64,000 nt of DNA from Chrysomallon squamiferum. Its lineage: Eukaryota; Mollusca; Gastropoda; Neomphalida; Peltospiridae. A program made the position numbers and the translations under genes. Each line of letters opens with the position of its first letter. The first letter of the stretch is position 1. Below, piece after piece: positions 40,191 to 64,000 of this stretch. The notes under the pieces were generated by a model. It was not told where the DNA came from, did no database searches, and worked only from the letters and a program-made list of their open reading frames with translations. The stretch lies in NCBI GenBank assembly GCA_012295275.1, contig CM022665.1:30496957-30560956 (forward strand), given 5' to 3'.

Positions 40191-41116
40191 TTAGAGTAAA
40201 ATAATTTCTGGTGTGATCACAATATGTTCTTTGTAGGCAGATGTTCTGTCACACTTATCTCTGGCAACAACAGTAAGGTATATATTGATATCTTTATTGG
40301 GTGACAGTGGCAATTTCAAAATTTCATCTGTGTTCTTAGTGAGTTTCTTATCTAGGATATCAGCTCCTCCCAGTACAGATCCCAGTGACACTTCATACAC
40401 TAGATCAGGCCATGATGATGTCACAGCATCTGTCCATGACAACGTGATCTTTCTGTCAGACATCTTTGTCACATTTATTTTAAATGAATCTGAAATTAAA
40501 TATATAGATTTTGATAATTTTATATATATTGTTAGCAACAGTCAAACTGTGACCAAACAGTCATCTAAAGAAGCATAAAAAGTGGTCTTGTAAGATGGTA
40601 ATGCATAATACAGGTCAGATTATACTGTATTAGATAATTTAGGTGAATAAAAATTTGGTCTTTTAACACAAGTGGCTATTTAATGGATATGACCAACAGA
40701 GCAGGTTTCAGGTACTTTCATAAAATGATATATTGATAACTTATTCAGATTATATTAAAACTGACTAAAAGTGAAAGAAAATATATAGGTTAAAATCACT
40801 TAAAAGTAAAAGTTTAGTCTAATAATAACAAAATTAAATTTGTCAAATTTGAAAATGAGAAAAGAATGTATACAGAGATGCCTACAGATGATTGAAAAAA
40901 ATCTATATTATCACCTATCCATAATGGTGGTTCTCCAGGCATTTCGAATGTTCCTGATACTTTTTCACCTTCCTTATCCAACACATCTACTGGAGTCAGG
41001 CTGTATTTGTACTCACCACTCTTCTTTAGTTTGAGATTTTGCAGGCTGGTGTGGTCAAAAGTCAGATATGAAGGAATTAGGTACTGCTTTGTGTTAGATG
41101 AGTCTTCCAAGGTTAT
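40191..41116 (-). CDS. Giant FN3-repeat protein: last two exons and C-terminus
   Basis: Exon 40915-41116 encodes a linker-like segment ending EMPGEPPLWI. The last exon 40191-40489 holds a final FN3-like repeat (KITLSWTDAVTSSWPDLVYE, then SLGSVLGGADI and IYLTVVARDKC). It stops at TAA 40191-40193 after HIVITPEIILL. There is no membrane segment, GPI-type tail or cytosolic domain, so the C-terminus is predicted to be free and extracellular, unless another isoform exists. Confidence 0.75.
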
Positions 41117-44100
41117 CTGTGAAAGGTGGAAAAAAAAAAAGACGAAAAAATAAGAATCCCTAATTACTACATCAAATTTACAAATGATGATACCAACGAA
41201 CAGGTTAAATTTTTATACATTCACAAATCATTTTATTTGTTTCTAATTATTATTTTAAAAATTTCACTTTCTAAAAATCTACAATGAATATAAACTATTT
41301 TTAAAACGTATATTGTCTGCATATTATTCCTATTGTATCTATTTTACTTTTATTTGTGAAAAGAATAATTATTAAAGCAGAATATTAAGAACTCATTTCT
41401 TATTCAGTTATTGGAATTCCAATGTTATCACCTAATAATGCATAATCAGAACTGATGAAAATAAATATATCTTGTTTTAGATCAGTATATATATATATAT
41501 ATAAAATGGATTATCTCTCATACAACCTCATAATGTATTATCTTTATATTTTATGTATGTAATAACTGCTTGAATAAGAAAAATGTGTAGGGTTACCTTT
41601 AAATTCTTTATGTCCACCAAGGCAGCATCATTTTGCCACCTGATCCTGAGTGAATTGTTTTGAGTGTGACAGACTGAGCCAGCAGGCAGCACAGTGAGAC
41701 TGTTACTTGACACAGTGTTAGACAGACCTTTACCAATCAGCTTCACCCCGTCACTGGTAGCCTGGGCTGGCAGTCCTGCCTTGTTGTGACACCTCACAGT
41801 GCTGTACACCATCAGAAACACGTCCACACTGGACAAATCAAAATCATGATGATTACTGTCACCATCAACCTTGACAAATGATTTGAGGTCAGATGAGCCA
41901 GATATAGATCCTGTGTGGTATGAATAAGTAAATGCTTGTTATTCGTCATATTACAAAAAAATACTTTTAAACCAAAATGTTAAGTTAAGGCTACAATATA
42001 TAAATGACTGCTGTATTATAAAATAATTACTTTTAAGCTTATAAATAAAAAAATAAATAAAGGATAAAAAAAAAGATAAGAAATCAGTCTTAATATGTAT
42101 TAAAATACTGTCTACAGGTTTTAATAAATAAATTTAATTTATAACATATATAAAATTACATTAAGTATAAATTGAAAAAAATTAGCACAGACTAGCACAG
42201 AAAATATTTTCACTTGATACTTTAGATGTAATAAAATGTAAATATATAAATGTTAATTTTCGATATTTTTTTGAAAGATATAAACTATTATCACCAATGA
42301 TAAGGAGAAATTTGTTAAAATGTGTCACCTATTGCCCATTCACAGTAGTCCACTCCAGATTCTTCATCTATAACTTTGTAACTGACAAACAGACGTGTGG
42401 ATCTCTGGAAATCTTCATCAGTTTCTGTAGAAAAATACAATAGTAATAATCACAGTATCAGGAAACACTTAGACATCTCTATTAAAATTATTAAATTGAC
42501 CTGAAACTCTAACAAGTCTCTATGTAAACTATCACAATCTCCTGAAAATCTGAGATATTTCTATTAAAATGATCATATTACTGAAACATGCCATCATATC
42601 TTACAAATTGAGACACCTCATTAATATCTTTCTTACAAACCTTGTCCATCGATGACATCAGTAATTACAGGTGGTGTCATGTCAACTTTGATGCCACCAG
42701 ATGTTGTCACACTGCTCAGTCCTGCAGCATTGGTGGCGACCACAGTGATGTAGATGTCTGTGTTGTGTGTCAACTTCAGTCCTGACGTAAAACCATGAGT
42801 CTGCTGTCCTACTCTTTGAAATCCTTTAACCTGAGTTCCACCAGGCACAGAACCTAAACAGTTATTTAATATAAATTGTTCCATTGTAAAGAAACAATAA
42901 ATCTCCAAGAAAAACAAAACTATACAACATATAACATATTATCTTCTAATTTTGCAAATGAGCATATATGAAGAATTCATAATGAACCTTTATAATAGCT
43001 AAACACAAGTTATATAACATATAAAGCATCAGTGCACTGTATAATAGGAAACAAACAGGTATATAATGTACAAGTATGATCATAAAGTTCTGTTATCAAA
43101 ATCACAAAATTACAATTAATTACAAATATTGCAAATCACTCTAATACGTTGTGTCCGAAAGTGTTTTCCACAAATCTGATAAATCAACATTATTCTGTTA
43201 CTTGTTTAACTCACCTATTGCCCATTTGTAATCAGCGATAGGAGACTGTTCATCTTGAAAATACCAGACAACATGAAGAGAAGTCCAGTGAGGCAGAAAC
43301 AGACTTGTTACTGAGATGTTCTCATCTTGTGTTTTTGACTGTTTTATGTAATCCACTGAATTAAGTGAGACTGAATCCACAGCTAGTTCAGCTTCCTTTG
43401 AAGATGTTCCAAAAGATATTTTTGTGGAAGGATGTTTTGCAGTGAAGGTGTATGTAAACTTGTGCCAGAGAATTGTTTTTTGTTCTCCAACATCACAAAG
43501 ACCTTTACAAAGATGTGGATCCAAATCAAAATAAATTTTGTCATCTCCAAACTGGATGTAACCCTCGGTTGTTGTGTGTTTGTCTGAAATGTTGTGTGGG
43601 TATCCAAAGTGAACTGTCAGTTTGTACAGTTTGTCTTGTACAGTTGAAACTGTCTGCCAGATGTTGCCACTGACAACCACGTGACTCTTTCCATGATGAG
43701 CAACTGATGATGTTTCTGAGACAAACTGCACACAGGAATCAGTCTGCCATGATGCTGGGACATTGCTGTTACAGTTTCCAGTCTGACTGTAACTTTCAAA
43801 AGATGGATTATTAAACAGATTATCTCCCAAGTAAGCCACACTGACAGACTGGGGTGGGGTGGAGTCAACCGTTACACCATCAGACACACTGACAGATGAC
43901 TTGTGTCCAAAAACATCAAATGAAAATACTTTGTGGAATATTTTCTTTCCTTAAAATAAAAAAGATAAAACATCTTTAGGTAAAATATAAAGTAATTTAT
44001 TTATTTAAAAATTTAACTGAAAGTCTATAATGAAATATATGTCTGTAAATTTACTGTAGTTAATTCACTGTTTTGGTATTTACACCGAGATAAATGAAAC

Positions 44101-47100
44101 AGAAATATTAACACATTTAAACAATTAACATATGAAAAAGAAGTTAAATTTCAGAATTACATGATTATTAACTTTTATGTTTATTCTGGGAAAAACCAAA
44201 CAAACCATTGGACATAGCTGTCTGTAATGTCTTGGTGGTACTCGTGTGCAGTCCAACATTGACTGGTTTATGGATGGTACACTCAGTGGTTGCCATGGTA
44301 TCACCAACACACCAAGTGTAGCTGACAATACCATATCCAGTGTCAGAGAATCCATGCCACGAAGCTGACAGATCTTTAGGATCAGACTGAAAATCTGCAT
44401 CATCAAGACCTGTAATTTAAATTAAAACAAAATGTGAAGTTAAAATTTGAAAAATGTTCTTAACCAGTATATCTTCAAGTTTAGCTTTGGGTTGAAATTT
44501 TTCATTATAACATTCTATCTTTTTCACTCCAATCATCAGCAGTTTTGTGTAAAAAAGAAATGTAGATATGGAATCTCTTGTCTATTTTTTATTTGATATT
44601 TTACCTCTTCCATCATTGACAATGCCTGAAAATGGTGGTGTTTTGTCCACAAAGAAGCCATCAGAAGAGTCCCAGGTCAGGAGACCAGCCATGTTGTATG
44701 CTAAAACATTGGAGTAATAAATCTGTTCTGACTTGAGAGAAATTCCTGTCACTTTGTACCAAGCAGAGTCAGTTGTCGATGCACTGTGACGTTCGTGAAC
44801 ACTGTGACCTACAAGACATAACAAAATATTTTCTTTTTCTCAAATATTTTACTAGCTGTGTTTAAAACACCAAATATTTCTCTGGTATGACTAAAATATT
44901 TCTTTAGCTCTTTAATAAAACTTCAGAAATGTCTCCATATCTAAATCATAACCATATTTCTGTAGTTCAAACTAAAATCTCAAAATATCTCTCAAGCTGT
45001 GTATAAAAATCCAAATGTTCCTCAAGCAGTGTCTAAAATTTCACAAGATTTTTCTGTGTTAAAAATACCAAAATATCAAAATAATGGATCATCACTTTTC
45101 TGTTTCACTGCAAGAAATTTTCTACTTGGTGTTTCCTGAAATTCATTTATGTTAAAAAAATAATAAATATTAACATTAACAAAACCATTTACCTCCAGGG
45201 TATGCACTCATACAGATGTAATTATATTTAAAAAATAACAAATTTTAAATTAACAAAAACACTTACCTCCTGGGTAAGTGCTGATACAAATGTGATTATA
45301 TTCAAAAAATAATAAATTTAACATTAACAAAAACATTTACCTCCAGGGTATGCACTCATACAGATGTAATATTATTAAAAAAATAACAAATTTAACATTA
45401 ACAAAAACATTTACCTCCTGGGTAAGTGCTGATATACACTCCATACTTTGTGAGACCAAACAAACCAGGTTTAAAATTGTCTTTCCAGCTCACATAAACT
45501 TCTTGGTTGTTATTTATGAAATCTGTGTCTTTCATCTGCCCATTACTTGAATGTTCTTTAACCTAAAAAATATAATATATTATTTTATTAAAACAGATTT
45601 AATATTATTAACAATGAATGAAATTTAAATTTTATATTTCATAAAGTTATAATGCTTTTTATTTTTACATATAAGTTTTTTTAATTCTATAATTTTAATG
45701 ATTTATGGAAAAGCTTTTTAAAAATATTTCTGTTCTTATTATTTTAAAATAATAAATTTAAATAAATAAGTTTCTTTCTTTCTAAAACAGATACATTGTG
45801 TTTCTCACTTCAAACACAAAGTAGAAGACATTGTTAAAACAGTAAACTTACTGCTCTGCCAACTTGGTTTGATATTCCCACTGCTTTGACAATCACAGCT
45901 ACTCCATCTGACTTGAAAACATCAAACACTTGAGAACTGTACCATGCACGAACAAAGACGGAATATTTGATATTTTCACTCAGCTGTTTATCTAAATAAT
46001 AGAAAAACAAATAAAATGTTTAAATAACTATAAATTAATAATAATCATGTTTTACATAAGGAAAATTCAAGACCTTTCAGTTTACATCAAAAACCTTAAT
46101 ATAATTTCTCTCGAAATAAATGATATTCAACTATTTAAGAAATATAAATTATAAAAAAAATATATTTATATTATAAAATTGAAAAAAGAAAAATGCAAAG
46201 AAGTATTCTTAAATGAATAATTTTATTTCCATTATTACAATAATGGCATATAGGCCTATTTTTTATTTTTATTTTAGTAGCACTTTTTCACTGGTAAAAA
46301 GATAAAAACAACCAAACATCAGATTTTGAAGATGAGTTTTGATGCAGTAAAGATGAGAATCTTCTTTTTGTTATCAACATCACTAAATAATGAAGAAAAC
46401 TAAACTTCAGTCTGTTATCAATGTCACTAAATAATGAAGAAAACTAAACTTCTGTCTGTTATCAACGCCACTAAATAATGAAGAAAACTAAACTTTCGTC
46501 TATTATCAACATCACTAAATAATGAAGAAAACTAAACTTCAGTCTGTTATCAACGTCACTAAATAATGAAGAAAATTAAACTTCAGTCTGTTATCAACGT
46601 CACTAAATAATGAAAAGATGTGAAAGTTTTGTTTGTTATCAATATCACTAAATAATAAAGAAAATTAAACCTCTTGGTATTGTGATCACTGCTGATGTGG
46701 CCAATCCAACATGAAACCAGATCTGATCTCTCTGCTGATTGTAAACACCTTCTGGTAAATCTTTGTCACTGTAACCAACACTTACTTCATACCTGAGAAA
46801 ACAACAATTAAATATGTAACTGTTTCCGTCATCTTGTTAACTTAACAAATATGTTGTTTAAAAAAAAACTCACAGAATACAAGCAAGTAATAATATATCT
46901 ATTTTGGCAGTGATTATAAAACAAAAATGGCTGACATTCACTGAAAAACTCAATTTTTTTTTATGTGAAATTATAAATAAAAATTCTATTATTTTACCAG
47001 TTTAAAGTATTTCATCACTGATACTTTTTGCTCTGTAAAGCTAAAATCAGAAGTAAATGAATTATTTTTCTTGATTCAAATGGTTTCACAATTTTATCAC

Positions 47101-50100
47101 AGTCTACTTTACCACAAAAATAAAATAAAAAATATAATGCACCTTTTCACTGGTCCACCTTTCTGTATTTGCCATGTTGCTGCTACATGAGAACTGCTGG
47201 ATGTGAACTGTTCATCTTTATCTTCTGTTTTAAAATGGAGATCAGTTACATCCTTGACAAGTATTTCTGTGCTTCCATCACCTGAAATTTATATTATTAA
47301 TATTACATTATAAAATTCTATCTTTTATCTTTAAGTAATAAAGACAATTGTTTTGGATCAGAATGTCTGCAAATTAGACCATTTTATCAAGTTTACCAAA
47401 TCAAATCATCTGTGCTAATCAAAACACTGGTCCTGTTACCATGTATACCAAATCAAAATTCTGGTCTATATTAGTGGTGCTTAATTAAGTTAATATTTTA
47501 TTTTTCATGGCATTTCAAATAATTTTTAAGATCTGAGCCTTTTGGTTGAATTTTATAATTGTTAAATTATGTAGTGTAGTTACATGCATTAGAGTTACAG
47601 ACATACAGTTTTTACCATCACCATACATTTTTGTACTGTCACTATGAGGCACTACTATCACTGGTCTGTAAGATAAATAAGTAAGCCAGAGGCTATAGAA
47701 GGAAATAACATGAGATACGTTGTGAGGAAGACTGATTCTCCAAACAAACAAGCTCAGACTAATACTAAAATTACATACTTCTGATTATTGCAGAATGTTC
47801 TTTTATATCTGTGTTGCCAGTGAGTTCATATTAACAGAAAATATAAATGTTTGTGCTATAATTATGTAAATAAGGGTATCCTACCACTGGAACATTTCCT
47901 GGCAATGTCACAAGTTTTGTCCTGACTGCCACACACACAGTGACCCACACAACTGAATACTTTACAGCGTCTGACAAGTTCCAGTGATCCTCCATTTGCA
48001 AGTGTCACTTCACTGTGCAGAGCATTTGACTGCAAACCAACCTTAACATGAAATTGTTATTTTTGTTAAAGCCACATAAACATTTTCTCAAATATATGTA
48101 ATATATATATATATATAAATATTAAGTGATCATAATATTTAATATTAATAAAACAATATCAACAACAAAAATTAACATAAAAAAAATAAAAAACTAGATT
48201 AGGTATAGAAATATTGTATACAGATTACTGTAAGCAAAAAATAATTCTTATGACAGCAGTTAACACAAAAAGATAAAAAAATGTATAATGAAACATTTAT
48301 TAGGATGAGATAAGAAATGAAAAAAATATTATAATGAAACAGATTACAGGTAAAAATTAAAACAAGTAAGACAAAAGATACATTTTATAATTATATATAT
48401 TATTACAGATAAATATGGTAGTTATATATAGATTACAGGTAAGAGTTACGAATATATACAAATAAATAACTTTTATAATTACTTATAATTATATACAAGT
48501 TACATGTATAACAGTTATAATTATATACAGGTTACATCTATAACAGTTATATACAGACTGATGTTACAAGTGCTAATTATATACAGGTTACATGTAAAAA
48601 AGTTATAAACAGATTATTGTTAAAATTATATACAGGCTACATATATAAGAGATATAACTATATAAGAATTAATGATTACATACAGATTCTGTTATATAAT
48701 TCTATACAGGTTACATATATAAGAATTATATACAGATTAGTTGCATTATAATTCTATACATATTACATGTATAAGAGTTATATACAAATCAGTTACATGT
48801 ATAACACTTATATACATATTCTACATGTTATAATTATATACAGATTACATGTATAAGAATTATATACAGATTAGTTACATGTTATAATTCTATGCAGGTT
48901 ACATCTATAAGAGATATTTACAGATTAGTACCTTATTAACAGCCCAGACTGCAAGGAAAAGTGAGGATCTCGTACTGATGTTTTTAGTGAGGTACATGTT
49001 ATAATTCTATGCAGGTTACATGTATAACAGTTATTTACAGATTAGTACCTTATTAACAGCCCAGACTGCAAGGAAAAGTGAAGATCTTGTACTGATGTTT
49101 TTAGTGAGGTACATGTTATAATTGCATACAGGTTACATCTATAAGAGTTATCTACAGATTAGTTACATGTTATTAGTACCTTATTAACAGCCCAGACTGC
49201 AAGGAAAAGTGAGGATCTTGTACTGATGTTTTTAGTGAGGTACATGTTATAATTGCATACAGGTTACATGTATAAGAGATATTTACAGATTAGTACCTTA
49301 TTGACAGCCCAGACTGCAAGGAAAAGTGAGGATCTTGTACTGATGTTTTTAGTGAGGACAGTGTACAGCTGAACAAATCCTTCATCTTTCTTGTCAGACC
49401 CTGTTGTTGTGTGTGATACTCTCACTGGCTGGCCATTCTGTTAGTAAACAACATTAACCACATTTATTATGTGTTCTAAATTTATTATTAGCTAACAATT
49501 CTTAATTGTCAAAAATACAACATATCAAAGCAGTAAAATGTTTCTGTATCTAACATTATGGGTCAGTGGATTACTACAAATCATAAATAGAATTATAATT
49601 TTCAGTTTGGTTTTACTTTTTTTTTTTAAATTCTAGTCAAGTCACTCTGATAACAGAATCCACCATATCTGATTTTTCAGAAGAAGCATCATGAAACATT
49701 TTTTGAAATATTCAACATGGACAGAATTTTTATTTTTAATACAGTCATGAAACCTGATTGAGATCTGTTCCGAATGGAGATGTTCCCACACTGACGATGT
49801 AATGATCTATTTGTGAGTGAAGATCAGAAAAACCGAGCCAGGCCAAGTTCAGTCTGTCCACTTCCCACGTCATCCACTCAGACTGGTGTCTTGTCAGACG
49901 AGCAGCATGCTCAGTTTTCACAGCAAACATTCCTAAGTTTTACAACACATTTCTCTCAGTAATCATCACATCAGTAAGAAGAAAGATATGTCTTTAGACA
50001 GCATATTTTATCAAACCTATTATTTTCATTTTAAATATTTAACTGACAACAATACAAAAACATACACATATGTATAGTTTTAATTTCATATAAAAGCAAA

Positions 50101-53100
50101 ATAATTTAAAATAATTACTTAACTTAAAAAAAATAGGAGAATAATTGTTATCATTTAAAATTATATTTTTGCAAAAGTTATTTATATATGCAAGTCTTCA
50201 TTTTTACTTTTAAATAAAACTGTAAATAAAAACATAACGATACCAGTTGTGGGTGGTGAGCTGTCAAATAAAAACTTGGTTGTCTTGGCAACAGCACACA
50301 AACCAGCCAAGTTACAGGCAACTACCTTCACATCATACAGACTGCCGTCATGGAGATCTAGTTTAGTGAAGATAAACTCTTGTAAAATTCCAGGAACCTA
50401 AAAAAAATTATTAGCATAATGAACTTAATTTCATAATAGTTAGTAATAAAATAATCAACAATTGTAACTCTGAAGTCTATAAATTATGCTCAAAATCTCA
50501 AGGGCAAAGTCAAAGTTTTTATTTTAAAACTAAAAGATTTGTAAATTAATACAGATCTAACACAGAATGTTGTTACCTTTTTATAATACTTGAAGAAAAG
50601 AATGTGGTTTTTTTAAATTATAATTATTTTTGTAAATAAAAAATTAAAAATATTTTCATTAACTGACCAACCTGAACAGAATTTGATTGAAATTCTCCCA
50701 GATAGTGAGAAGAAAGAGAAATAAAATGTCTTTCTATGTACGACTCAGAATCTGTGAACTTCCACTTTATCTTGATGTTTGTTCTGGACACGGTTGTCCG
50801 TCGGATCATGGAGTTTATATCCTCTGACAGAAAGGGTTTGGTGGATACAGAGGGTGGGGTGAGATCAACATAAAATCCACTTGATGTTGCTTCTGTCCAC
50901 AAACCTGAAAATAAACATTTAATAATTTATTTTAACAAACATTATCTCAGATACTGTTATTTAATTTAAGATTTTAAATGTTACCACATTATCAAAGGAA
51001 TAAATAAATTTTAAAATCTAAAATTTTGTTAACATTTTGCAGTGATGACTTCTATGAGAGGAAACCTGCTTCTACCATTCAAGAGCTGCTCTTAATGATC
51101 AGGAAAGAGGTTCTGTTTTTGCAATATGCTTCACGTCAAAAGATTTACCAAGACATTTACCTCAGCAAGCATGGAACTAGAGTTGGAATGGGAAATATCA
51201 ATATGAATTAATTTTGCATGTATTTACTATTTCATAAAAGTAAAAATTGTTTTATTTTCAAAGACGTCAAACAACACAAGTAATCTGACAACCTGCTTTG
51301 TTGTAAGCTCTGACGGTGATGTACATGAGTTTATTTGTCACTAGACTGGTGCTGGTGTAAGCAGATTCTCTCAGTGGTAATCTTGTCACTGTGAGCACAT
51401 CAGCAGAACCAGGAGATGTTCCAACCCTCCACTCATAAAAAGCCAGACCAGACTGAGCATCCTGGAATCCATGCCACTTGGCTGACACAAACGTCCTGAA
51501 CAACAAAATGAAATGTAACACTGTCCTGTACATTAGTAATACTATTTTAGTTACTTGATGCTAACACACAAATATACATATATAAATATGTAGTAGTTAG
51601 TTGTGATTTGAAATATGACACTGTCCTGTACATTAGTAATACTATTTTAGTTACTTGATGCTAACACACAAATATACATATATAAATATGTAGTAGTTAG
51701 TTATGATTTGAAATATAACTTTGTCCTGTACATTAGTAATACTATTTTAGTTACTTGATGCTAACACACAAATATACATATATAAATATGTAGTAGTTAG
51801 TTGTGATTTGAAATATGACACTGTCCTGTACATTAGTAATACTATTTTAGTTACTTGATGCTAACACACAAATATACATATATAAATATGTAGTAGTTAG
51901 TTGTGATTTGAAATATGACACTGTCCTGTACATTAGTAATACTATTTTAGTTACTTGAAACTAAACACACAGATATACATATATAAATATGTAGTAGTTA
52001 GTTATGATTTGAAATATAACTTTGTCCTGTACATTAGTAATAATACTCTAAAACACTTGAAACTAAACACACAAATATATACATATAATTGTTTTTTTCA
52101 AACATGATACTGTCTTTTAAAATTAATAACCAAAAATACTTGAAAGAGATATCACACACACTTGAAATATGACAGATTTTCCATTTAGTAATCATTCAGG
52201 ATCAGACTGTATATTTCCCATTCCAACCTACCATCACAGACTAGACAATATTATGTACTCTAAAGAATCATTAAAAGTAAAAATTCTGTTTGTAAATTAT
52301 TGTTTTGAACAAAATATTTCAGCACAGAAAAAGCATGAATAATCATATTATAGATTTACAAAATTGTCGTTTGAAGAATGAAATTCAAACAGACAGAAAT
52401 GTCTAAAATGTACACTAACTTAGAAGCTTGGAACTGTGTTTCTGTGTCTCCTATTCCATCCATTACATGACCTCTGATTGGTGCTGTGTTGTCAATGACA
52501 ACGCCATCTGAAGTGGCACTGGTACACAGCAAGGCAGAGTTACATGCTGTCACAGTCACAAAGTATTTAACTCCTTGTGCAGGAGCTGTGTGACTCAGAT
52601 CAATTTCTGTTCAGTTAACAAATAAAACATTAACAGAAAAATTCTTCAATGTATCAGTTTATCTGATTTTATAATTACAGGAAATTAAATGATGTTAAAA
52701 AAAAGGTTTTCATATTAAATTGAATGACATTTTGTCTCTAATGATATGTATACATAATTTTAAGCATAATACATTTTCAAGGTAAACTTTAAAAAATTTA
52801 AATAAAAAAATTACCAGTTCTCAGATTGTATTCAAATTCTTCCACTAGATCACCACATCCTTTACATGTGCCAACCTTGACCTTGTAAACAGAGATAAAG
52901 GACTGCGGGTCAACAAATCCGTCCCAGTAGACAACAAACATGGATACATTGGTGATGTAATCTTTGTCTTCTGTCCTTGACCCTTCATAAACATGACCAG
53001 GTAAGGGTGGAGATGTGTCCATCATGATGGAACGAGAGACTGTTTGTTTGTAAAGTCCAGCTCCATTAAAGGCCTGAAAAAATTAAAAATGTCAGAAATT

Positions 53101-56100
53101 TTAAAAAGATTATCTCTTTATCAAAAAACTTTCACTAGTAATTGTTGTACATACTTTTTATAAATAATGTCTTGTTCACACCAAAAGCAACTTCAAATAC
53201 TAAGAAAGCAAATGAGTTCTAATTTGTTTTGAATGTGAAATGATATACAACTCATATTTCATGATTCAAGTTAATTCTTTAATGATATATAATTATTTAA
53301 ATAACAAATAAAATATGTAATAAAAACAAGATTAAAAGTAAATACTGTATTCCTGTTTATCTACAGACTGATAAATAAAGTAATAAACTATATAAAAAGC
53401 TGACTTTGACAGTGATGTAATATTTGTATCCAGCTTTCATTTTGTCGGTGTATTTCAGGTTGATACAGGTGTCACTGCTGTCAGTGAAAGGTATGACGTC
53501 ATCATAGCCAGGTCTTGAACCAGCAGCCACTGAGAAACTTTTTACTCCACTCTCAACATCAGAAAACACTCCATTCCAGCTGAAATGAGATACCTTTTAA
53601 ACATTGCTAATACATAATATATCTCAAATTATCATTTACCAAAATATACTTTATTTGCATGTTAGAAAAATGTTTTCATATTATACCTCTAAAATATTAA
53701 ATAGCTTTTAAAATAGTTTAAAACCTACTGAATTAAAAGAAATTCTTTTTCTTTCTTTAATTGAAACTGTAGATACAAAATTTGGTATAATCCTGATTTG
53801 ATTAAAATAGAAAATTTAAAAGACAGCCTTTAATGGGACTAATTATAAATATTTTAATGAAAATCTAACTGACAAGCATTAAAAAATAATGAAAAATAAA
53901 TAAATTTAATAAAGTTACCCAATCAAAAATCAACAAATAGTTTAAGGTTGTTATTAATATAAAAAGGTATAGACAAATGAAACTTAAAATATTTAAATTA
54001 CAGAAATCAAACATTTTTTTTTTTTTTTTGTGTACATGAAAATAAAATGAAACTAAAAACTATTTAAATTAGAGAAATTATAGTGATTGGCTCTTTGATG
54101 AATGACAAAATCTATAAATAGAAAGAAGATTACCAAACATGTATTTGTGAGGTTGTGATGAAACGAGATGAAAGTTGTATCTGAACTGAAGTAAGCTGGG
54201 GTGGGGTGTTGTCCACAATGAAAGATTTAGAAGTCACAGCTGTAGTCTTGTTAACAAAGTCTCTTGCTGAAAACAAAATAATCAATCCTATAATTAGCTA
54301 TGGTAAAAAAAAAAAAAAAAAAAAAAAAAAAGATTTCTGACTGAATAAATTATCTCCTACAAATGGGTAAAATTACTTTAAAGAATTTTATTTTTTTTGG
54401 ACTTGTGCTCATCTTTTGAACGAATTAAAAAAAAAAAAAAATAATAATAATAAATAAATAAATTAATTAATTAATTAATTAATTAATTAAAATAAAATCA
54501 TAAAAATAAATAATTAAAATTTATAATACAGAATTGCAATAATTATGATGTATGATTCTTTAAATATTTGTTATGTTTTATTATAATTATTTTTGAATAA
54601 AAAACAATGATACTGCAATTAAATAGCAGATGAGAGAGAGAAAGAGAGGTTGAATTTACAAATAGATTTAACAACCTTTAACAGTGACAAACAGTGTGTG
54701 TCCATTCTGTAGTTTGAGACTGTGCAAAGTTTGGTGATTGACGAGGCCAACGTTGTGAAAACTGACAACATCTTCACCTCCAGGAACTGAACCTGTCAAA
54801 TAAATTAAACATAACAACTTGTTATATATAATATTAAACATAACAGCTTGTTATATATATTAAACATAACAACTTATTGTATACTTTAAGCATAACAGCT
54901 TGTTATATACATTATTATATACATTGTTATATATATTAAACATAACTTGTTACATTAAATGTAACAACTTGTTATATATAATATTAAACAACAACTTATT
55001 ATATATATTAAATATAACTTGTTATATAAATTAAACATAACAACTTGTTATATATAATATTAAACAACAACTTGTTATATACATTGAACATAACTTGTTA
55101 TATACATTGAACATAACAACTTGTTATATACATTGAACATAACTTGTTATAAGCATTGAACATAACAACTTGTTATATACATTGAACATAACTTGTTATA
55201 TACATTGAACATAACAACTTGTTATATATAATAATAAACCTAACAATTTGTTATATACATTAAACCTAACAACTTGTTATATACTTTAAACCTAACAACT
55301 TGTTTTATCCATTAAACATAACAAGTTGTTATATATAAAACATTTGTCTTTTATAAATGCAATAGTATGTCATATAGAGACATGTTAAATATCATCTACA
55401 ATGAGAAAATTAGCATGAAAACAGAACTATAACCAAACTAAAAGTAAACTTTAGAAATATTCAACATGGTATTATTGAAATTATTACAAATGTAAATATT
55501 AAAACATTAGAAATCCTCTCAATGAAAAGCAGCCATAATTTCTACATTTGTTTCAAGTCTGAGTAATCTGTTTTGTTAGTTAATAATCTTAATTGAGAAA
55601 TGATATTTTAAAATATATCAAAACAAAAGTTTTAAGGAACATTTTTAAATATAGACAAAAGCAAGGGTTTTTGAAGTTTATAAAAATCTTAACGTAAGTA
55701 ATGAAAATTTAAAGTTAACAGAAGATAAACAAACTAACCAAGTGCTATTTGATAGTCTGCTATTCCAGTAGTGTGCAGTACAGAACTGATTTCATCAACA
55801 TCAGTAAACCCATCCCACAACACCTCCACCTCAGTCAGGGACGACTGAAATTATTAAATAAACATATCAACTTTGAGTCTACATAATTAATCTCTCATTT
55901 CATTTACCTGTTTTCTTAGTCTCTCTTTCTATTTTGTTAGTGTTTGACAATCATTACCCAAGATTTCAGAAATCTTTTACATAAAAAAAAATGTAGAGTA
56001 TACTGAACTAATGAGTAAGATAAAGTTTAACATAAATAATGAGCACAGCATCAAAACAAAACAAAAAAAGATAAATAAATAAATTAAAAAAATTAAAAAT

Positions 56101-59100
56101 TAAAAAAATGTAAACAGATAAATAAATAAACAAAAATAGCTATTTTATACAAATTAATTGATCAAAACAGAACTTCTCTATTTTATTGATAAACTGAAAA
56201 CTCTATGCACAATTACAATAAAACTATTAACTGAAAATCTGATATTCATTCTTTTCATCTGATAAAATAATTCATATATGTATTATTATGTGTATGTTTG
56301 ATATACTAATTATGAAATAATTTAAAATAAATATTCTAAGATTATTTACAAAAGATTACCTGATATTGCTTGTGATTGAGTTTGCTAATCCACACTCGAC
56401 CACCAGTAGGTTTAGTGAGATCAATAACAACACCATCACTGCACTGATTTACTTCTAACAGGTAATCTGTCCACTTTTCATACTGCACTTGTTTCTCACT
56501 GGCATGAATACAGATGTAGTAACGCTTTCCATGTTGTAATGACTCATCAAACTCCACATTTACATACTCCTTATCTGTAAAATAACAAGACACATACTCT
56601 TTATCTGTAAAATAACAATACACACACTCTTTATCTGTAAAATAACAATACACACACTCTTTATCTGTAAAATAACAACACACACTCTTTATCTGTAAAA
56701 TAGCAATACATATATTTTATCTGTAAAATAATAGTACACACACTCTTTATCTGTAAAATAACAACACACACTCTTTATCTGTAAAATAGCAATACACATA
56801 CCCTTTATCTGTAAAATAACAATACACACACACTTTATCTGTAAAATAGCAATACACATACTCTTTATCTGTAAAATAACAATACACACACACTTTATCT
56901 GTAAAATAACAATACACATACTCTTTATCTGTAAAATAACAATACACACACACTTTATCTGTAAAATAACAATACACATACTCTTTATCTGTAAAATAAC
57001 AATACACACACACTTTATCTGTAAAATAACAATACACATACTCTTTATCTGTAAAATAACAATACACACACTCTTTATCTGTAAAATAACAACACACACT
57101 CTTTATCTGTAAAATAGCAATACACATACCCTTTATCTGTAAAATAACAATACATATATTTTATCTGCAAAATAACAATACGCACACATTCAATGTGTAA
57201 AATAATAATACTCATACCACTGATACTGAAAAAAGACAATTTCTTATTGGTAAAGTAATATTGATATATCTCTTTTTTTTTCAGTTCTGGAAATAGGATT
57301 AATTTTACATCTGGTTACTAAATAGTACTGATGTATTTTTTATGTATATATTAAAACAGGTAAAATATTGTTAATTAACTGTATCCAATAGTGTATTAGC
57401 AGAATAATTAATTGAAATACTTTTAACAAACGTCTTCTCAAGTAAATTAATAATTTAAATTTACATTTTTTATCTATATAATATGTAAAATAATTTTTAA
57501 AAATTCTAATTTGCTCTTTCAGTCTGCTTCTGTTAAAGTGTAAATAACAATAAAACATTGATAAAACAGTTGTGATGTTTACCTGTGTGATTACATTTGA
57601 CAACTCCAGGTAAAGAACAAGGGTCAGACACAGACATCAGTGACTGTCGCTGGTAGTGAGCTGCTGGGGGTACAGAACTCCCTTCCATTACCGCCCACGA
57701 GTAGTCTCTGTGTCTGAGGCTGGGCCACACAGCAGACAACATGTCAGAGTATGGAGTGTAGTCAACATCGTCCTCAGTCCACTGAGCATTTTCATCTAAC
57801 ATCACACCAGCAGAACCTCCATCTTCTCTCCTCTTTCCTTAAATATCAAAATTAGCATTACACAACATTATGTCAAACAAAATTATTATGATAATTTACT
57901 TTATTTCATATTTTATTTCCACACCTATTTTGTAAATAAATAAATAATCTTTAAAAAAAACACACCCAATGTTTAGCTGGTTAAAAGCTTGTATAAATTT
58001 CAGTTTAATTTGTTTTCAAAACCAAATTATATATAACATATGTCGTTTATCTAAAACTATTTAAAAAGGACAGTTTTGATCTAAATACTTGCATGCATTT
58101 AAGTTTATCAGCTTTTAAAACAAAAATTCCAATAATATTCCAAACCAAAATCATCACAATCAAAGTTTAATAAAAAGAAAAATTAATACTGTTAGTTTAA
58201 CAAAATGAAAAAATGTAGAAACAAATATTTTTCATTAAAAAGCTTGAGTCATTTTGAAAGTTTTACTGCCTTTCAAATAAAAATTTAAAACATTTGAAAT
58301 AATAATTATCAGTACAAAACCGAAAACTGACAGTTGAACATGAAATGTGTTTACCTAAGACATCGATGACAACGGCAGGAACAACAAGGGCAGGATCGAA
58401 AGCAGAGCAGTTTCTGACATCGGCAGACACCATTGTGGACATCTCAACTTTGTTGAATCCTCTCACAGCCAGACGTCTGCATTCTCTGAAATTCAGTTTT
58501 CCAGCAAGTGTCACAGTGAAACTGATCTGAAAAATGAAACATAAAGAATAAATTATACTGATTCTATTTTTATCTTTTTTAATCTTAGTAAAAACCAACA
58601 ATTATTGAATTATAAACACTTTACTGGTGTTTATAAATGTGTTAACTCACATGTGTAGAATTTACGTTTTGAACATTTTTAACTTGTGTCCACTTTTCTA
58701 ACAAACGACTGTCATGCCTGTTATCTGTCAGTGCCCACTCATATCTGGACATGGTTGTCATGGCAACATCTTTATCTTTGATGTCAGGATCAAAGAATTT
58801 AGCAATCTCGACCTTTATCTGTGAAAACAAATTTTCATAATTAATTACTAATACAATATTAATCTTTCTATAATTACAAAAATAATAAAAATTACAGTTT
58901 GGTCATACACCTACATTCAAAACTGCTAGATCCTATAATTTAATCTTTTTAATTACAGCTGTAATCATTTGTTTATTTGTTTTATTATTTATTTATTTGC
59001 TGCTTTTTGTTTATGTATTTACTGATTTCTACCTGAGAAGTAGTAGAAGTTTCTGAGTACAGCAGAGTTATTGTTCCTGACTGTGGTGGTTGTGTTATAA

Positions 59101-62100
59101 TTGTCACTCCGTCACTGAAAACTGGCTGAGAACAGATTTTTGCGACACACAACTTGACGGCAGCTCGGTATGTGTGACCTGACTGTAAACTGACACCTCC
59201 AGCAATCACAGTGTCAGTGGATGATATGTGTTCATAGGATCTGACACTGTCCCACAGATTAACTGTAAAAACAGATACAATACATTAAATAAACCAGATA
59301 AATCTGCGTAATAAATATTCACTCTGTATTAAATGTTTAAACTAGGAAATGTGTGCAGTAAAATAAAAGTAGAAATTTAAGTGGAATCATTTATTGATTG
59401 CAAATTGAGTCCTCTTCATTGAACTGACTGAATGATTTCCTGTTTCACCCAGTGCTCCTATCTGTTTTACCAACTGCAGAAGTATCTAACTTTTCTGTCA
59501 ATGGAAAGATGTGTATGAAAGGTTTATTTCTGCCAATAAATAAAAGTAATCCATGAAATTGTATCAGTGGGTTTTCTCACTAACAGTTACATTAGACATA
59601 TAATATCAAAAGACATAGATTTTTAAGAATTTATAAACATTACCTGACAAAGGTTTCTTTTTCTGCAGACTCCAGACGACGTCTGGATACAAGGACTTGG
59701 ACCTGTCTGAACGAGTCCAGTGAGCAAAATAAACACTGCTTGAAGACTGGTACGAAATATCATCAACACATTTCTCTTCATCAACCTTAGTGACACAATC
59801 AACACATTTGTTAACTTTATCAACATAAATGTAACAAATACAAGTACTGAAATATCATCAACACATTTCTCTTCATCAACCTTAGTGACACAATCAACAC
59901 ATCTGTTAACTTTATCAACATAAATGTAATAAATACAAGTACTGAAATATTATCTATACATGTCACTTTAGTGATATAATCAACACATTTACTACAATGT
60001 ACAAAGTGCTCAGAGCTTGAAGACTGGTAAGAAATATCATCAACACATTTTCCCTCATCAACTTTAGTGACACAATCAACACATTTCTCCTCATCAACTT
60101 AGTGACACAATCAACATATTTATTACAATGTACAAAGTACACAGTGCTTAAAGACCAGTATGAAATATCAATATATTTCTCTTCATCAACCTTAAGTGAC
60201 ATAATCAAAACAGAGATCAATAAGAATAATGTAACAAATTATGAAATAAATAGAGATAAAGCCTACGTTTTTGTAATGTTCTGGTTTCCATTTCATGTTA
60301 TCTGAAAAAAAAAAAAAAAATTAATTACTATTACACTGAAACTATTTTGAAATCTGACCACCAAAAAGTCTTTTGTCTTTAAAACAAACATAATTTAAAT
60401 ATTCTGAAGATAAAATAGATATAATATATCCTTAAGTATAGGACTTAAGACAGTCAAAAATAGACATGGAAATTTCTAAATTAAATTGTGTGTAATCTCT
60501 TGTATTAAAACAAGGAATCAGTCTACTGATATGTTTTAAAAAATAAAAACCTGCAGACTGACAGACAGGACCATCATTGATGACAACATCAGACACAACA
60601 GTCTGGTTCTCTACTATCTGAAATCCATTTGAGGATACCAGTGTATCACCAGCTTCATTTGTAGCCACAACCAGTGAGTAATATTGCTGTAATATAGTCA
60701 TAATATTGCTGTAACATCGTCATAACATTGCTGTGATAGTCATAACATTGCTGTAATATAATAATAACATTGCGGTAACATAGCCATAATAATGCTGTCA
60801 CAGTAACATTTATAATATTCCAGTAATATATTTTTTGATATTACTGTAATACATTCATAATATGGCTGTAATGTATTATTAAAATTACTAAATATATTAT
60901 AATATGAATTAACTGATTATTCATATTCATGTTATATAATTGATCCTTCAGCAGCTATAATACATTCATAATATGACACAATTTAAACAATTCTGAATTA
61001 GTGGATAATATTACTGAAATACATGAATAATGCAGCTGTAATTATCATTTTCAACATCATCTGTTAACTGAATGTGGCCTTAAAACAAATAAATAAAAAA
61101 GGTGTAAAAAGCTACTTACCTGATGAATATTGAGATTTAAACTTGTAAACGTGTGTTGGTTTTCACTGAGAACAGAAACAAAAGGAACAATGTTAGCAGT
61201 TTTCTGTGATGTTCCTAACCCAACTTTAAACGTCAAACTTTCAACTTTGTCAGTAAAACCAAACCATCGAACACTGAGTTCTTTTCTTGTCAGCTGATGA
61301 TCACTGTCTTCCAATAACTGTAAAAACAAATTTGAAATTTAACATTTTTATATATTGATTTCCTCACTGTCTTCAATAACATTTTCAGTTATAATATTTG
61401 CTAAAATGAGATTTCATTAAAATATAGCAAATATCTTTCAGTTTTAATTAAAAAAAAGAAGTAGAAAACACAATTATAATTCAATTCATATGAAGTATTT
61501 TGTTGTTTAAAATCAGAGATAATGTTGTTGTTTTTATATCAAAACAAATTGCATCCAACTTATAAGAATAATTTTATCATCGTACAGATTAAGAACAGTT
61601 TAACTTAGAACTGTAATAAAAGAGGAAATGGAATAATTAAGTTAATTAAAACTCTGACATAAAATCATGATCACTAACAGATGATTCGAGTACATCAACT
61701 TCCTCATTAGGAATCACTTCATAGACTAATCCTGCATGTGGACGTTTGTTGCTATGGAGATACGGTTGTGACACACCCACTGTGAGTTGACCGACAATGT
61801 TCTCCACCTGGACAGACACAAAGTAGGTGTGTTTTTCATGAAGACCAAACTGTAGACGAGACAGAGACACAGCTGTGCAGACAGGCGGAGAGGAAACGAC
61901 ACATCCTGCACCTGACTGCAGCACAGACCACTTGTGTGTTTCTTCACCTTTACCTGTGTGTCCTGTTTAAATTCATACAAAGCTAAAATATTCAATAACT
62001 TTTTATACTATATTTTATCAAATTAAAATATTTAATATAACATTTTATAAACTGAAATATTTAATATACTTTAATATTGCATGTATCAAAACAAAAATAT

Positions 62101-63983
62101 ATAATCACTTTTTATACTACATTTTATAAAATTAAATAATTCAATAACTTTTTATATTACATTTTATATAATTAAAATATTTAATAGTTTAATATAACAT
62201 TTTATAAACTGAAATATTTAATATATTTTAATATTATATGTTATAATGCAAACATATTTAACACTTTAATATTTGAACCCCAATTTTTAAATAGATTTTA
62301 ATATTACATTATAAAAACAACAATATATAACACATTTCAACATTACACTTTATAAAACAAATTTTTAAAAATATTTTAAATATTACATGTATCAAAATGA
62401 GAATATTTAACTCATTTTAATAATACATGTTACAAAAAACATATATTTAATACCTTTTAATACTACACGAAACAAAAATAGTTAACTCATTTTTATATTA
62501 GGTGTATTAAAATAAAAATATTTAAATCATTTTAATAGTACATGTATTAAAACTAAAATATTTAACAGATTGTTAAATCATAAAAAGACAACATAATTAC
62601 ATTTTAAACTGTTTGACTTTAGTTTGTGACTTTCACCAAATTGGGGTAATAACAATGAACTTAACAAATCAGATCAGAATAAAACAGAACCAAGAAATCA
62701 AACACACCAACAGCAAATGAATATTTTAAATATTTGGTTTCCATGTCAGTGAATGTTGAAGTCGTCCATTCTGCAACCAGGTAATTTTCTTGTAGAGTTA
62801 CTTTGATTGGTGGTGTGAAGACAGGGTTTTCAGTTAAAACTATCACTGGACCAATCACCTTTAACATAAAGAAAATCACATGAATAAAAATGTGATCATG
62901 CACCCCACAAAAATCCATAAATTAAAAATAAATTACAGAAATTCCTTTATTTTTAAAATGATCACTAGACAGGAAATTATTTATATATACAAGAACTACA
63001 TTATTAATGGGGAAAAAACAACAACATTTTTACGGGGTATCAGGTATGAATATATTTATGTCTGAATCTGCAGTTTCAAGTTTTATGCAGAATATTTTTG
63101 TGAAATGGATGAAATTACAAGATTTTTATAAGATAATCTGTAAAAACAAATGATCAAATGTTTATTTTTGTCAGAACAGTCGTAACTACAAACAACATGT
63201 ACTTACTTTATTTGCTGAGTTTTTAGCTTTGTTGATGACTTTGATGATGATAAAGAATCGTCTTCCTGCATTGATGTTGGTGTGGAACAGTTGTTCATGT
63301 TGATGCTGATGTGTTGATGTGAAGGGTTTGACATCAGGAGATGCTGCACCATTCTTGCTGGATGCAAAACCAATTTCATAATCAAATATTCCACTCTCAG
63401 CATCTGATCCTGTCCAGTTCAAGTACAACTAAAACCAAATTTTATTTCTTTTTTATAGAAATATTTAATAATTCTACTATATTATAGTACATATCTGGTG
63501 TTATGATTATTGTGTTTTTTTAATGTAAAGTTTTAGTGAAGAAATATTTTAAAATCTGTCTAAAAAATAATGAGAGATTGTGAAATGAGAGAGAGAGAGA
63601 GAGAGAGAGATTTAATAAGACTACTACATTATAGTACATAGCTGTTATGATTACTGTACCTTTACTGTTATATTTTAATATGACTCTTTTGGTAGTTGTA
63701 TCTAATTAACAAGAAAAACTTTTCTACTGACAGCTCAATACATAGTTCAGTATCTGATATTTTTGTTTTCTACAATCAACTGACATTCAAACAATTAGTT
63801 TTAATGTCAGAAATAATTATTATTCATGCCTGAAATTCTTTAAAAATGTACATCTTGTTCAAGAAATCTTCAGACATTCCACTTTCCTCTTCACAAACTG
63901 ATGCTTTCACTGTCTTGGTTTCTCCACTTTCAGTTTTATCTATTGGCAGATTTGAAAGATCAGCAATTGGAGTTGCCTTTGTT
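40191..63983 (-). CDS. Giant extracellular protein of FN3-like repeats, C-terminal 2,407 codons (37 exons; 5' end off window)
   Basis: Exons in order: 63830-63983, 63207-63428, 62708-62858, 61679-61962, 61120-61317, 60551-60686, 60267-60301, 59644-59785, 59033-59262, 58651-58818, 58355-58526, 57583-57837, 56360-56574, 55739-55844, 54676-54792, 54134-54266, 53405-53579, 52815-53073, 52420-52606, 51293-51495, 50672-50904, 50244-50397, 49754-49932, 49297-49437, 47885-48041, 47143-47281, 46671-46792, 45852-45991, 45415-45562, 44605-44808, 44206-44409, 43215-43949, 42641-42853, 42329-42424, 41597-41910, 40915-41116, 40191-40489. Every junction keeps frame. Each repeat of about 120-150 residues follows one plan: 'W-x-GF-x-D-x2-SG-(I/L)-x2-Y-x-(W/V)-x-(I/V)-G', then 'YYITVKAFNGAGL' and 'SDGVVID-x-TPP'. 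About 17 copies are seen. This resembles fibronectin III folds in secreted or adhesion proteins. No membrane segment is seen in this part. Function and closest family are unknown. Confidence 0.8.
43215..43949 (-). CDS. Giant FN3-repeat protein: 735-nt exon with an inserted galactose-binding/DUF642-like domain
   Basis: The largest exon of this gene in the window, phase 1 to 1. It starts with the end of a repeat (VSVSDGVTVDSTPP). After that comes about 150 residues with the pattern 'NLFNNPSFESY...VPASWQTDS...GKSHVVVSGNIWQTVS' and 'YKLTVHFGYPHN...KTILWHKFTYTFTA'. It ends with 'AELAVDSVSLNSVDY' and a new repeat start (HVVWYFQDEQSPIADYKWAIG). 'N-x-SFE ... W ... V-x-G-N-x-Q-x-V ... Y-x-L-x-F ... 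DSVSL' is the usual layout of galactose-binding-like jelly-roll domains (DUF642/CBM-type). That assignment is inference from pattern, and glycan binding would follow only if correct. Confidence 0.6.
45190..45414. repeat. Tandem copies of an exon end plus splice donor
   Basis: Directly after the donor of exon 45415-45562, a ~75-80-bp unit repeats three more times (junctions near 45190, 45265 and 45340). Each carries the donor and the last ~25 nt of the exon (ACTCATACCCTGGAG-like / GTAAATG). The copies read like YISTYPGG or MSAYPGG up to the donor. Confidence 0.8.
46368..46670. repeat. 45-bp minisatellite abutting a splice donor
   Basis: About 6.5 copies of a unit containing CTGTTATCAACGTCACTAAA + TAATGAAGAAAACTAAACTT. 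The last copy ends at the donor of exon 46671-46792, whose intron start GTTTAATTTTC is the same sequence as the repeat's GTTTAGTTTTC. Confidence 0.85.
47885..48041 (-). CDS. Giant FN3-repeat protein: cysteine-rich exon
   Basis: 157 nt, phase 0 to 1. It begins VGLQSNALHSEV and completes a repeat core from the previous exon (AVWAVNK|VGL). A compact Cys cluster follows: RRCKVFSCVGHCVCGSQ and KTCDIARKC, seven cysteines in about 27 residues. This replaces the usual 'SDGV-D-TPP' end of the repeat and is presumably disulphide-bonded. I do not recognise the motif as a named domain. Confidence 0.75.
48360..49290. repeat. Intron minisatellite with three partial copies of exon 49297-49437
   Basis: Repeats of a GTTACATGTATAAGAGTTAT + ATACAGATTA type run through 48360-48900. 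From 48926 the unit also carries about 61 nt of the 3' end of the neighbouring exon plus its donor, at 48926-48993, 49043-49110 and 49174-49240. The real exon end is at 49297-49358. Confidence 0.85.
49297..56574 (-). CDS. Giant FN3-repeat protein: middle block of repeats (exons 13-24 in window)
   Basis: These exons carry the clearest repeats. Examples are RYYICIHASEK plus SDGVVIDLTKP (56360-56574), WDGFTDVDEISSV then IALGSVPGGEDVV (55739-55844 to 54676-54792) and WNGVFSDVESGVKSFSVAAG (53405-53579). Others are YYITVKAFNGAGL plus MDTSPPLPG (across 53405 and 53073) and WHGFQDAQSGLAFYEWRVG (51293-51495), whose core continues as YITVRAYNKAGLW with VDLTPP (50672-50904). Introns often split a repeat right before the 'AG' of the core, in phase 0 or 1. 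Exon 53405-53579 leaves through a weak donor, GTCAGC, but the joined protein reads perfectly through the motif, which supports it. Confidence 0.78.
51515..52090. repeat. 100-bp minisatellite next to a splice acceptor
   Basis: Units start at CTGTCCTGTACATTAGTAAT at 51521, 51621, 51721, 51821 and 51921, with a partial unit at 52022. The period is exactly 100 bp and the copies are nearly identical. The array begins about 20 bp from the acceptor of exon 51293-51495. Confidence 0.9.
54306..54332. repeat. Poly(A) tract
   Basis: About 26 consecutive A residues in an intron of the giant gene. Confidence 0.9.
54800..55335. repeat. ~25-bp minisatellite upstream of exon 54676-54792
   Basis: About 20 irregular units of the AACATAACAACTTGTTATAT + ACATTG type start a few bases from the splice acceptor. 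The unit is partly palindromic (AACAACTTGTT). Confidence 0.85.
56573..57175. repeat. 30-bp minisatellite made of a splice acceptor plus exon start, 21 copies
   Basis: The core TTATCTGTAAAATAACAATA recurs 21 times. On the minus strand each unit reads (T)ATTTTACAG then ATAAAGAGTATGTG. This is the acceptor of exon 56360-56574 followed by the exon's first bases (ATAAGGAGTATGTAAATG). Most units are exactly 30 bp, which keeps the reading frame and makes spurious open frames repeating CYFTDKEYVY. Confidence 0.95.
57583..63983 (-). CDS. Giant FN3-repeat protein: upstream block of repeats (exons 1-12 in window)
   Basis: The first exon seen (63830-63983) is entered in phase 2 from an exon beyond the right edge. 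Its best in-frame exit is a GC donor at position 63829 (see findings). Repeat cores seen include LYLNWTGSDAESGIFDYEIG (63207-63428), HTYFVSVQVENIVG (61679-61962), VRWFGFTDK (61120-61317), YYSLVVATNEAGD (60551-60686) and FSDGVTIITQPP (59033-59262). Exons 58355-58526 and 57583-57837 fit the repeat plan less well and may be divergent copies or linkers. The 35-nt exon at 60267-60301 is small, but both its splice sites and its phase fit. Confidence 0.72.
59786..60210. repeat. Tandem partial copies of exon 59644-59785 with its acceptor
   Basis: Copies of the exon start plus acceptor (plus strand ATCATCAACACATTTCTCTT, then CATCAACCTTAGTGACAC) recur at about 59853-59890, 60036-60072, 60078-60105 and 60168-60200. 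The copy near 60018 extends further into the exon (GCTTGAAGACTGGTAAGAAA). Confidence 0.85.
60687..60865. repeat. Short tandem repeat containing a duplicated splice acceptor
   Basis: Plus-strand units of the ATTGCTGTAATATAGTCATA type run upstream of exon 60551-60686. The real junction (ATTGCTGTAAT; minus strand ATTACAG then CAAT) is itself one unit of the array. Confidence 0.8.
61985..62560. repeat. AT-rich degenerate minisatellite
   Basis: Irregular repeats of AAAATATTTAATATAACATT + TTATAAACTG in the intron upstream of exon 61679-61962, beginning about 20 bp from its acceptor. Confidence 0.7.
63584..63610. repeat. (GA)n microsatellite
   Basis: About 12 GA units in an intron of the giant gene. 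Confidence 0.9.
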
Positions 63984-64000
63984 CTGAAACATGAAAATGT

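What the first reader, a model, noticed from the sequence alone, without database searches (positions are those of the whole stretch)
45190..62560. A single giant gene whose introns repeatedly grow minisatellites out of its own splice junctions
In at least five introns of the minus-strand FN3-repeat gene the tandem unit contains a copy of the adjacent splice site, with part of the exon in several cases. These are 45190-45414, 46368-46670, 48926-49290, 56573-57175 with 59786-60210, and 60687-60865. At least three more arrays start within about 20 bp of an acceptor. The TANGO1, HAAO and coiled-coil genes in the same window show no such arrays. This looks like a recurrent local process, such as replication slippage, microhomology repair or transcription-linked breaks at exon edges. 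It supplies many alternative splice sites and could seed new exons.
Basis: partly seen in the sequence, partly recalled or inferred. Interest (0 to 1): 0.78.

Follow-up and report, generated by a model that had tools for sequence, protein, structure and literature searches.

The report
Splice-junction minisatellites in one snail gene
One large snail gene carries nine fast-changing DNA repeat arrays in its introns, six of them holding copies of the neighbouring splice junction; it looks like a local repeat-instability hotspot whose extra splice sites would mostly be harmful if used, and a genome-wide check is still missing.

Summary
Nine large minisatellites lie in those introns. In six the repeats copy the splice junction (three donors, three acceptors), with exon sequence in five; two more stop 7 and 13 bp from an acceptor; the ninth is 60 bp away. 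The arrays are concentrated here: by one automatic pipeline 5 of 28 introns of this gene carry an array of 150 bp or more (9 of 29 by hand) against 0 of 50 predicted introns elsewhere. They are hypervariable: all nine array introns differ in length by at least 10 bp between near-identical gene copies, against 1 of 19 array-free introns. The junction bias is modest, because introns are short: 8 of 10 arrays lie within 13 bp of a junction (P 0.0001 to 0.03), but the founder-duplication null gives P 0.03 to 0.10. Extra splice sites rarely help coding: 4 of 57 intronic array sites keep an open frame. Junction-spanning minisatellites are known singly in human genes; this clustering in one gene is the new part.

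The parts
44150..63428 (-). Phase-consistent part of the FN3-repeat gene, exons E2-E31 (30 exons, 29 introns, 1735 aa). E31 as modelled ends in a stop, but a predicted donor at 44205 and further predicted exons at 43215-43949, 42641-42853, 42329-42424, 41597-41910, 40886-41116 and 40255-40489 continue the gene; homology upstream reaches about 67.5 kb, outside the window
45147..45434 (-). A1: 74/148-bp array, 4 copies (one is the real exon end); each holds the last about 19-25 bp of E29 plus its donor
   Evidence: junction-copy donors score 6.0-7.6
45415..45562 (-). Exon E29, donor edge at 45415
46369..46670 (-). A2: 44-bp array, 6.8 copies, starting exactly at the donor GT of E27; donor motif kept in 6 copies including the real one
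46671..46792 (-). Exon E27
48483..49357 (-). A3: 26/56-bp AT-rich array running into a 117-bp array whose units hold the last about 58 bp of E24 plus its donor; 4 junction copies including the real one, 3 in gene copies B and C
49297..49437 (-). Exon E24
51509..52088 (-). A4: 100-bp array, 5.8 copies, 13 bp from the acceptor of E20; unit does not contain the junction. Unit starts: 5 here, 4 in copy C, 1 in copy B
54800..55335 (-). A5: 26/49/76-bp array, 7 bp from the acceptor of E15; unit does not contain the junction
56562..57211 (-). A6: 30-bp array, 22 copies; unit holds the acceptor and first about 13 bp of E13; 20 intronic acceptor copies score 6.0-8.8 against 9.0 for the real one
56360..56574 (-). 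Exon E13, acceptor edge at 56574
59750..60190 (-). A7: array built on 18/36-bp and 95-bp periods; two intronic copies of the start of E8, at 60023 (acceptor AG kept) and 60154 (AG lost). By strict TRF edges the array begins 3 bp from the junction
59644..59746 (-). Exon E8, acceptor edge at 59746
60679..60906 (-). A8: 22-bp, rather diverged array (72% matches); unit holds the acceptor and first about 8 bp of E6; acceptor motif or a near variant in 6 copies including the real one
60551..60686 (-). Exon E6, acceptor edge at 60686
62023..62566 (-). A9: 40/77-bp AT-rich array, 60 bp from the acceptor of E4; no junction copy seen
41564..64000 (-). Window part of a 25.3-kb tract (41564-66909) largely matching the inverted copies B/C downstream (array-free introns 0.9-1.1% apart); outside the tract only pieces 70-87% identical were found

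Best explanation
The gene is a local hotspot of intronic minisatellite birth and turnover. Short tandem duplications arise in its introns and then expand and contract, often by whole units (shown: length differences between near-identical gene copies). Because introns outside the arrays are only a few hundred bases long and units are 22-117 bp, many founding duplications start at or across an exon edge; such duplications survive because the copy next to the exon still splices, leaving the others as unused or rarely used decoy sites (inferred). In two cases (A3, A7) an existing short-period array seems to have captured an exon piece. The driver is most likely recombinational repair or unequal exchange in this inverted, homogenised gene pair rather than anything aimed at splice sites (inferred, not shown). 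A residual, about two-fold excess at junctions is unexplained.
For: Array density 4429 bp in 20 kb here against 2282 bp in about 172 kb around it and 1519 bp in 90 kb of random genome; 5 of 28 introns against 0 of 50 elsewhere by one pipeline, P 0.005. All 9 array introns differ by 10-747 bp between copies, 1 of 19 array-free introns by 10 bp or more, while 17 array-free introns are 0.9-1.1% apart in bases. Founder null expects 2.8 of 10 arrays at junctions, seen 5-6. Exon pieces sit inside shorter-period arrays in A3 and A7. Differences between real exon and array copies are third-position biased, 13 of 16, P 1e-4, as if the working exon kept evolving as coding sequence; private array changes are not (2 of 8). 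53 of 57 intronic array sites would break the frame.
Against: The link to recombination is only spatial, and the homogenised tract covers nearly the whole gene, so arrays lying inside it mean little. Copies B/C may be the other haplotype or partly an assembly chimera: the probable source paper gives 1.38% heterozygosity. Four arrays consist mostly of junction units, which fits a junction-seeded process better. With an overhang limit of 20 bp the junction bias is strong (P 0.0001-0.007). Not all length changes are whole units, and A4 in copy B keeps only one recognisable unit start.
Confidence: 0.5

Rival explanations
1. Junction-directed mutation: something about exon edges (composition step, splicing-linked breaks, slippage at splice motifs) repeatedly seeds tandem duplications there.
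For: 8 of 10 arrays lie within 13 bp of a junction, expected 2.1 (overhang limit 20 bp, P 0.0001), 3.7 (limit 61 bp, P 0.0065) or 4.7 (limit 100 bp, P 0.03); A1, A2, A6 and, more loosely, A8 consist mostly of junction-bearing units.
Against: Under the founder-duplication null the excess is about two-fold (P 0.03-0.10), and the strict overlap count gives P 0.17 with 61 bp overhang and 0.41 with 100 bp. Predicted introns of other genes carry no large array, 0 of 50. Both donors and acceptors are hit.
Confidence: 0.25
2. Chance plus selection of the case: a repeat-prone gene with short introns will have several arrays touching exons, and the reader picked it for that reason.
For: Expected junction hits 2.8-4.2 of 10 under permissive nulls, P 0.03-0.41. 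One gene only; junction proximity could not be tested elsewhere because no large array was found in a confident intron outside it.
Against: Two more arrays stop 7 and 13 bp short of a junction. Array density itself is far above flank and random DNA.
Confidence: 0.2
3. Selected splice-site arrays: repeated acceptors or donors are kept because they diversify, or dampen by nonsense-mediated decay, the transcripts of a large FN3 protein.
For: A6 holds 20 intronic acceptors scoring 6.0-8.8 (median of the real acceptors 6.6), where array-free introns would give 0.3 per 650 bp. The three acceptors nearest the exon add 10, 20 and 30 codons in frame without stops.
Against: In A1, A2, A3 and A8 none of 29 intronic sites keeps an open frame; in A6 3 of 20, in A7 1 of 8. 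Private changes among array copies show no coding-type bias (2 of 8). No RNA evidence.
Confidence: 0.05
4. Assembly artefact: long-read errors created or inflated the arrays.
For: Copies B and C are split by a 200-N gap and overlap each other; copy B lacks one base in E24 and matches E23 poorly.
Against: The six junction arrays recur with their junction copies in the gene copies that cover them, in opposite orientation. Array-free introns agree within 4 bp except one at 12 bp.
Confidence: 0.03

Closest known systems
[quoted passage not shown] only its title seen, in the reference list of PMC2572611; paper not held; that the gene is human IFI6/6-16 is recalled)
   Same: A tandem unit that contains a splice site, giving many copies of it
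   Different: By the title one array with donors; here six arrays in one gene, three at donors and three at acceptors, plus three more nearby. Use in a transcript is in that title; untested here
Variable internal tandem repeats in human segmental-duplication genes (PMC2812944, passages read)
   Same: Minisatellites (on average 30-bp units) varying between recent paralogs, some at exon-intron boundaries (27 intron modifications in that study)
   Different: Spread over many genes, with transcript evidence; here concentrated in one gene, without transcript evidence
[quoted passage not shown]
   Same: A tandem duplication that crosses an intron-exon boundary and copies its splice signals
   Different: There one duplication made a new intron; here many-copy arrays lie inside introns and no new intron is shown

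Membership tests
Minisatellite providing multiple splice sites | Repeat unit contains a splice site that matches the gene's own consensus | tested here: met
   A1, A2, A3 (donors), A6, A7, A8 (acceptors; in A7 one intact intronic copy)
Minisatellite providing multiple splice sites | Several copies are used in transcripts | not testable with these tools
   no RNA data held
Variable-number minisatellite (VNTR) | Copy number differs between alleles or recent copies | tested here: met
   9 of 9 array introns differ in length; e.g. 1008 against 1755 bp at E12-E13, 924/729/824 at E19-E20. Alleles or paralogs cannot be told apart
Introner elements (definition recalled) | Dispersed copies carrying both splice sites of a new intron | tested here: not met
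   in each array the copied junction is of one type; a genome search with A6, the only array searched, returned only its own gene copies and weak 65-78% matches, with few candidates scored
Intron gain by tandem duplication | The duplicated segment forms a new spliced intron | not tested
   intron positions in homologous genes were not compared; only protein alignments were made
FN3-repeat protein family of molluscs and deuterostomes | Sequence homology along the repeat region | tested here: met
   (residues 800-1400): best E 5e-251, Haliotis 48-51%; one fn3 match above Pfam's cut-off

The most novel reading that the evidence does not exclude
Exon edges of this gene, or of a class of genes, are preferential birth sites of minisatellites, so that splice junctions are repeatedly amplified into arrays that turn over faster than the gene itself and act as tunable decoy splice sites; A6, with 21 acceptor motifs in one gene copy and 45 in another, would be the clearest case.
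Probability: 0.17. Interest if true: 0.72.

Novelty: new variant of a known kind. Interest (0 to 1): 0.42.

Why it matters
Single genes with a splice-site minisatellite are known; a gene with six of them, varying between near-identical copies, is a natural test of how the spliceosome picks one of many similar tandem sites and of whether exon edges are mutation hotspots. Both questions can be answered with RNA-seq and raw long reads. If junction-seeded duplication proved general, it would offer a steady supply of raw material for alternative splice sites and intron change. If not, the case shows how short introns make junction-spanning repeats look purposeful.

Tried and rejected
A coding role for the arrays was considered because A6 and A7 read open next to their exons; rejected as a general reading, since 53 of 57 intronic array sites break the frame or meet stops (a first pass had tested 37 of the 57). 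Conservation of the splice motif within A6 units was not used: units were picked by that motif and are nearly uniform. A paralog source for the exon pieces was considered because of the third-position pattern; not adopted, as the intron parts of the A1 units are alike and the arms outside the tract match only in pieces. The outermost exon E1 of the hand model does not keep phase with E2 and was dropped. The third-position count uses hand alignments: for A1 the diverged copy class was used (the other class matches the exon at those codons; without A1 9 of 11, P 0.0014), and the A3 difference is not fixed, since copy C carries the array version in its real exon. Private changes were counted for A7, A6 and A3 only. 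The junction test includes one low-complexity array (54422-54545). The outer exon pieces of the two arms do not all show third-position bias (9/9/13, 16/16/14 and 18/15/30 differences at positions 1/2/3), so they give no clean age for the pair.

Literature: six searches ran, the last for the source genome. Judged by titles and abstract starts, plus passages of PMC2812944, none showed one gene with several junction-containing minisatellites; the library lacks most subscription papers.

Full report
Gene and source. The minus-strand gene was modelled by hand. Exons E2 to E31 keep one open frame through 29 introns and give 1735 residues. The best homologs are large, mostly uncharacterised FN3 proteins of molluscs, amphioxus, hemichordates and echinoderms (144 proteins at E <= 0.001 for residues 800-1400, 120 listed; Haliotis 48-51%). 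Six of the 120 listed were aligned. The alignment runs without a gap through E24/E25 in 6 of 6, through E12/E13 in 5 of 6 (one extra residue in P0011), through E27/E28 and E29/E30 in 5 of 6 (P0005 lacks the segment), through E5/E6 in the 4 that cover it, and E7/E8 is in register from the acceptor on in the same 4. So the junctions are well supported, though not by RNA. The gene is longer than the window shows, about 40.2 to 67.5 kb. The genome has 404.6 Mb in 22 sequences. The nearest HAAO is Gigantopelta aegis, 79%. The scaly-foot snail paper reports 15 pseudo-chromosomes plus seven unanchored contigs, 1.38% heterozygosity and Nanopore data (PMC7142155, passages). The window is therefore probably Chrysomallon squamiferum; this is an inference, and the assembly size was not in the passages seen.

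The arrays. Nine large minisatellites lie in the 29 introns. In register: A1, A2 and A3 carry donors of E29, E27 and E24; A6, A7 and A8 carry acceptors of E13, E8 and E6; A4 and A5 stop 13 and 7 bp from an acceptor; A9 is 60 bp away. Junction motifs, the real one included: A1 4, A2 6, A3 4, A6 21, A8 6 (one near variant); in A7 two intronic exon-start copies, one with its AG lost. A1, A2, A6 and, more loosely, A8 consist mostly of such units (A2 of donor and intron only). A3 and A7 have a shorter-period array with an exon piece inside it.

Hypervariability. Two further copies lie inverted downstream, B and C, split by a 200-N gap. Seventeen array-free introns are 1.1% (A-B), 0.9% (A-C) and 0.6% (B-C) apart in bases. 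All nine array introns differ by at least 10 bp in at least one copy (A/B/C): 1008/1755/-, 924/729/824, 520/420/-, 433/411/-, 679/625/635, 606/-/711, 1255/1190/1233, 946/911/911, 745/735/-. Of 19 array-free introns one does, by 12 bp; the intron with the low-complexity array differs by 19 and 29 bp. Nine of the 19 could be compared in one other copy only. Several differences are close to whole units (22 at E5-E6, 100 at E7-E8 and E19-E20 in C, 44 at E27-E28 in C), others are not; A4 keeps 5, 1 and 4 unit starts in A, B and C.

Is it concentrated here? Arrays of period 15 or more and score 100 or more cover 4429 bp of 20 kb of this gene, 2282 bp of about 172 kb around it, and 1519 bp of 90 kb of random genome that includes 8773 N (9 of 60 drawn stretches, picked by me from the draw, were obtained). 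With one automatic pipeline 5 of 28 introns here and 0 of 50 confident introns elsewhere carry an array of at least 150 bp, P 0.005. The gene finder was trained on this gene and is rough; it missed four of the nine array introns here.

Is the junction bias real? With arrays placed at random in their own introns, the strict overlap count is 5 of 10 against 1.4 expected (overhang limit 20 bp, P 0.007), 3.1 (limit 61 bp, P 0.17) or 4.2 (limit 100 bp, P 0.41). Within 13 bp it is 8 of 10 against 2.1 (P 0.0001), 3.7 (P 0.0065) or 4.7 (P 0.03). Placing one founding unit at random gives 2.8 expected, 5 or 6 seen, P 0.10 or 0.03. A run with no overhang allowed gave P 0, but it cannot produce overlaps and is not used. 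The bias is suggestive, and no genome-wide control was possible.

History. Where array copies hold exon sequence, 13 of 16 differences from the real exon fall at third codon positions (P 1e-4; 9 of 11 without A1). Private differences among array copies do so in 2 of 8 (A7 0 of 4, A6 0 of 2, A3 2 of 2). The likely reading is that arrays are old and the working exon has since drifted mainly at silent sites. The counts are small and hand-aligned.

Splicing. With a matrix from the gene's own junctions, 20 intronic acceptor copies in A6 score 6.0-8.8 (real 9.0, median of real sites 6.6); array-free introns hold 3 sites of 6.0 or more in 6337 bp. At the low cut-offs used to list sites (1.4 and 1.6) array-free introns also give 13-15 sites per kb, so only A6 and A1 stand out. 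Of 57 intronic sites listed in the six arrays, 4 extend the exon in frame without a stop, three of them in A6. So the arrays are decoys or nonsense sources more than seeds of exons.

Mechanism. The near-identical tract (41564-66909) ends abruptly on both sides: beyond it blastn found only five pieces of 70-87% identity in the stretches compared, three of them on exons, and no alignment between. This is either gene conversion between inverted paralogs or an artefact of assembling two haplotypes. If real, repeated repair between arms would be a natural driver of repeat turnover; this is inference.

Noticed in passing
window 41564-66909 and 96274-134220 (window numbering continued downstream, L012-L016): Inverted head-to-head gene pair, array-free introns about 1% apart over 25.3 kb, but only pieces of 70-87% identity outside it: gene conversion tract, other haplotype, or assembly chimera
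   Followed up: partly
window-numbered 118513-118712 (L014): 200-N gap between two overlapping copies of the same gene part (B and C, 0.6% apart in array-free introns); copy B lacks one base in E24 and matches E23 poorly, as an unmerged haplotype or unpolished contig would
   Followed up: partly
30262-31072: 811-bp minisatellite of 61/122-bp units with no well-scoring predicted exon nearby, the only other large array in the window
   Followed up: no
G000:C7, among others about 31.79-32.03 Mb and 0.87-0.94 Mb: Distant FN3 relatives (24-35% identity) with open frames up to 1125 codons, apparently intron-poor, in clusters on another contig
   Followed up: no
43215-43949: Predicted exon of the same gene with a weak DUF642-like match (E 0.0012, below Pfam's cut-off)
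   Followed up: no
about 18751-24905: HAAO gene on the plus strand, 79% identical to Gigantopelta aegis HAAO
   Followed up: yes
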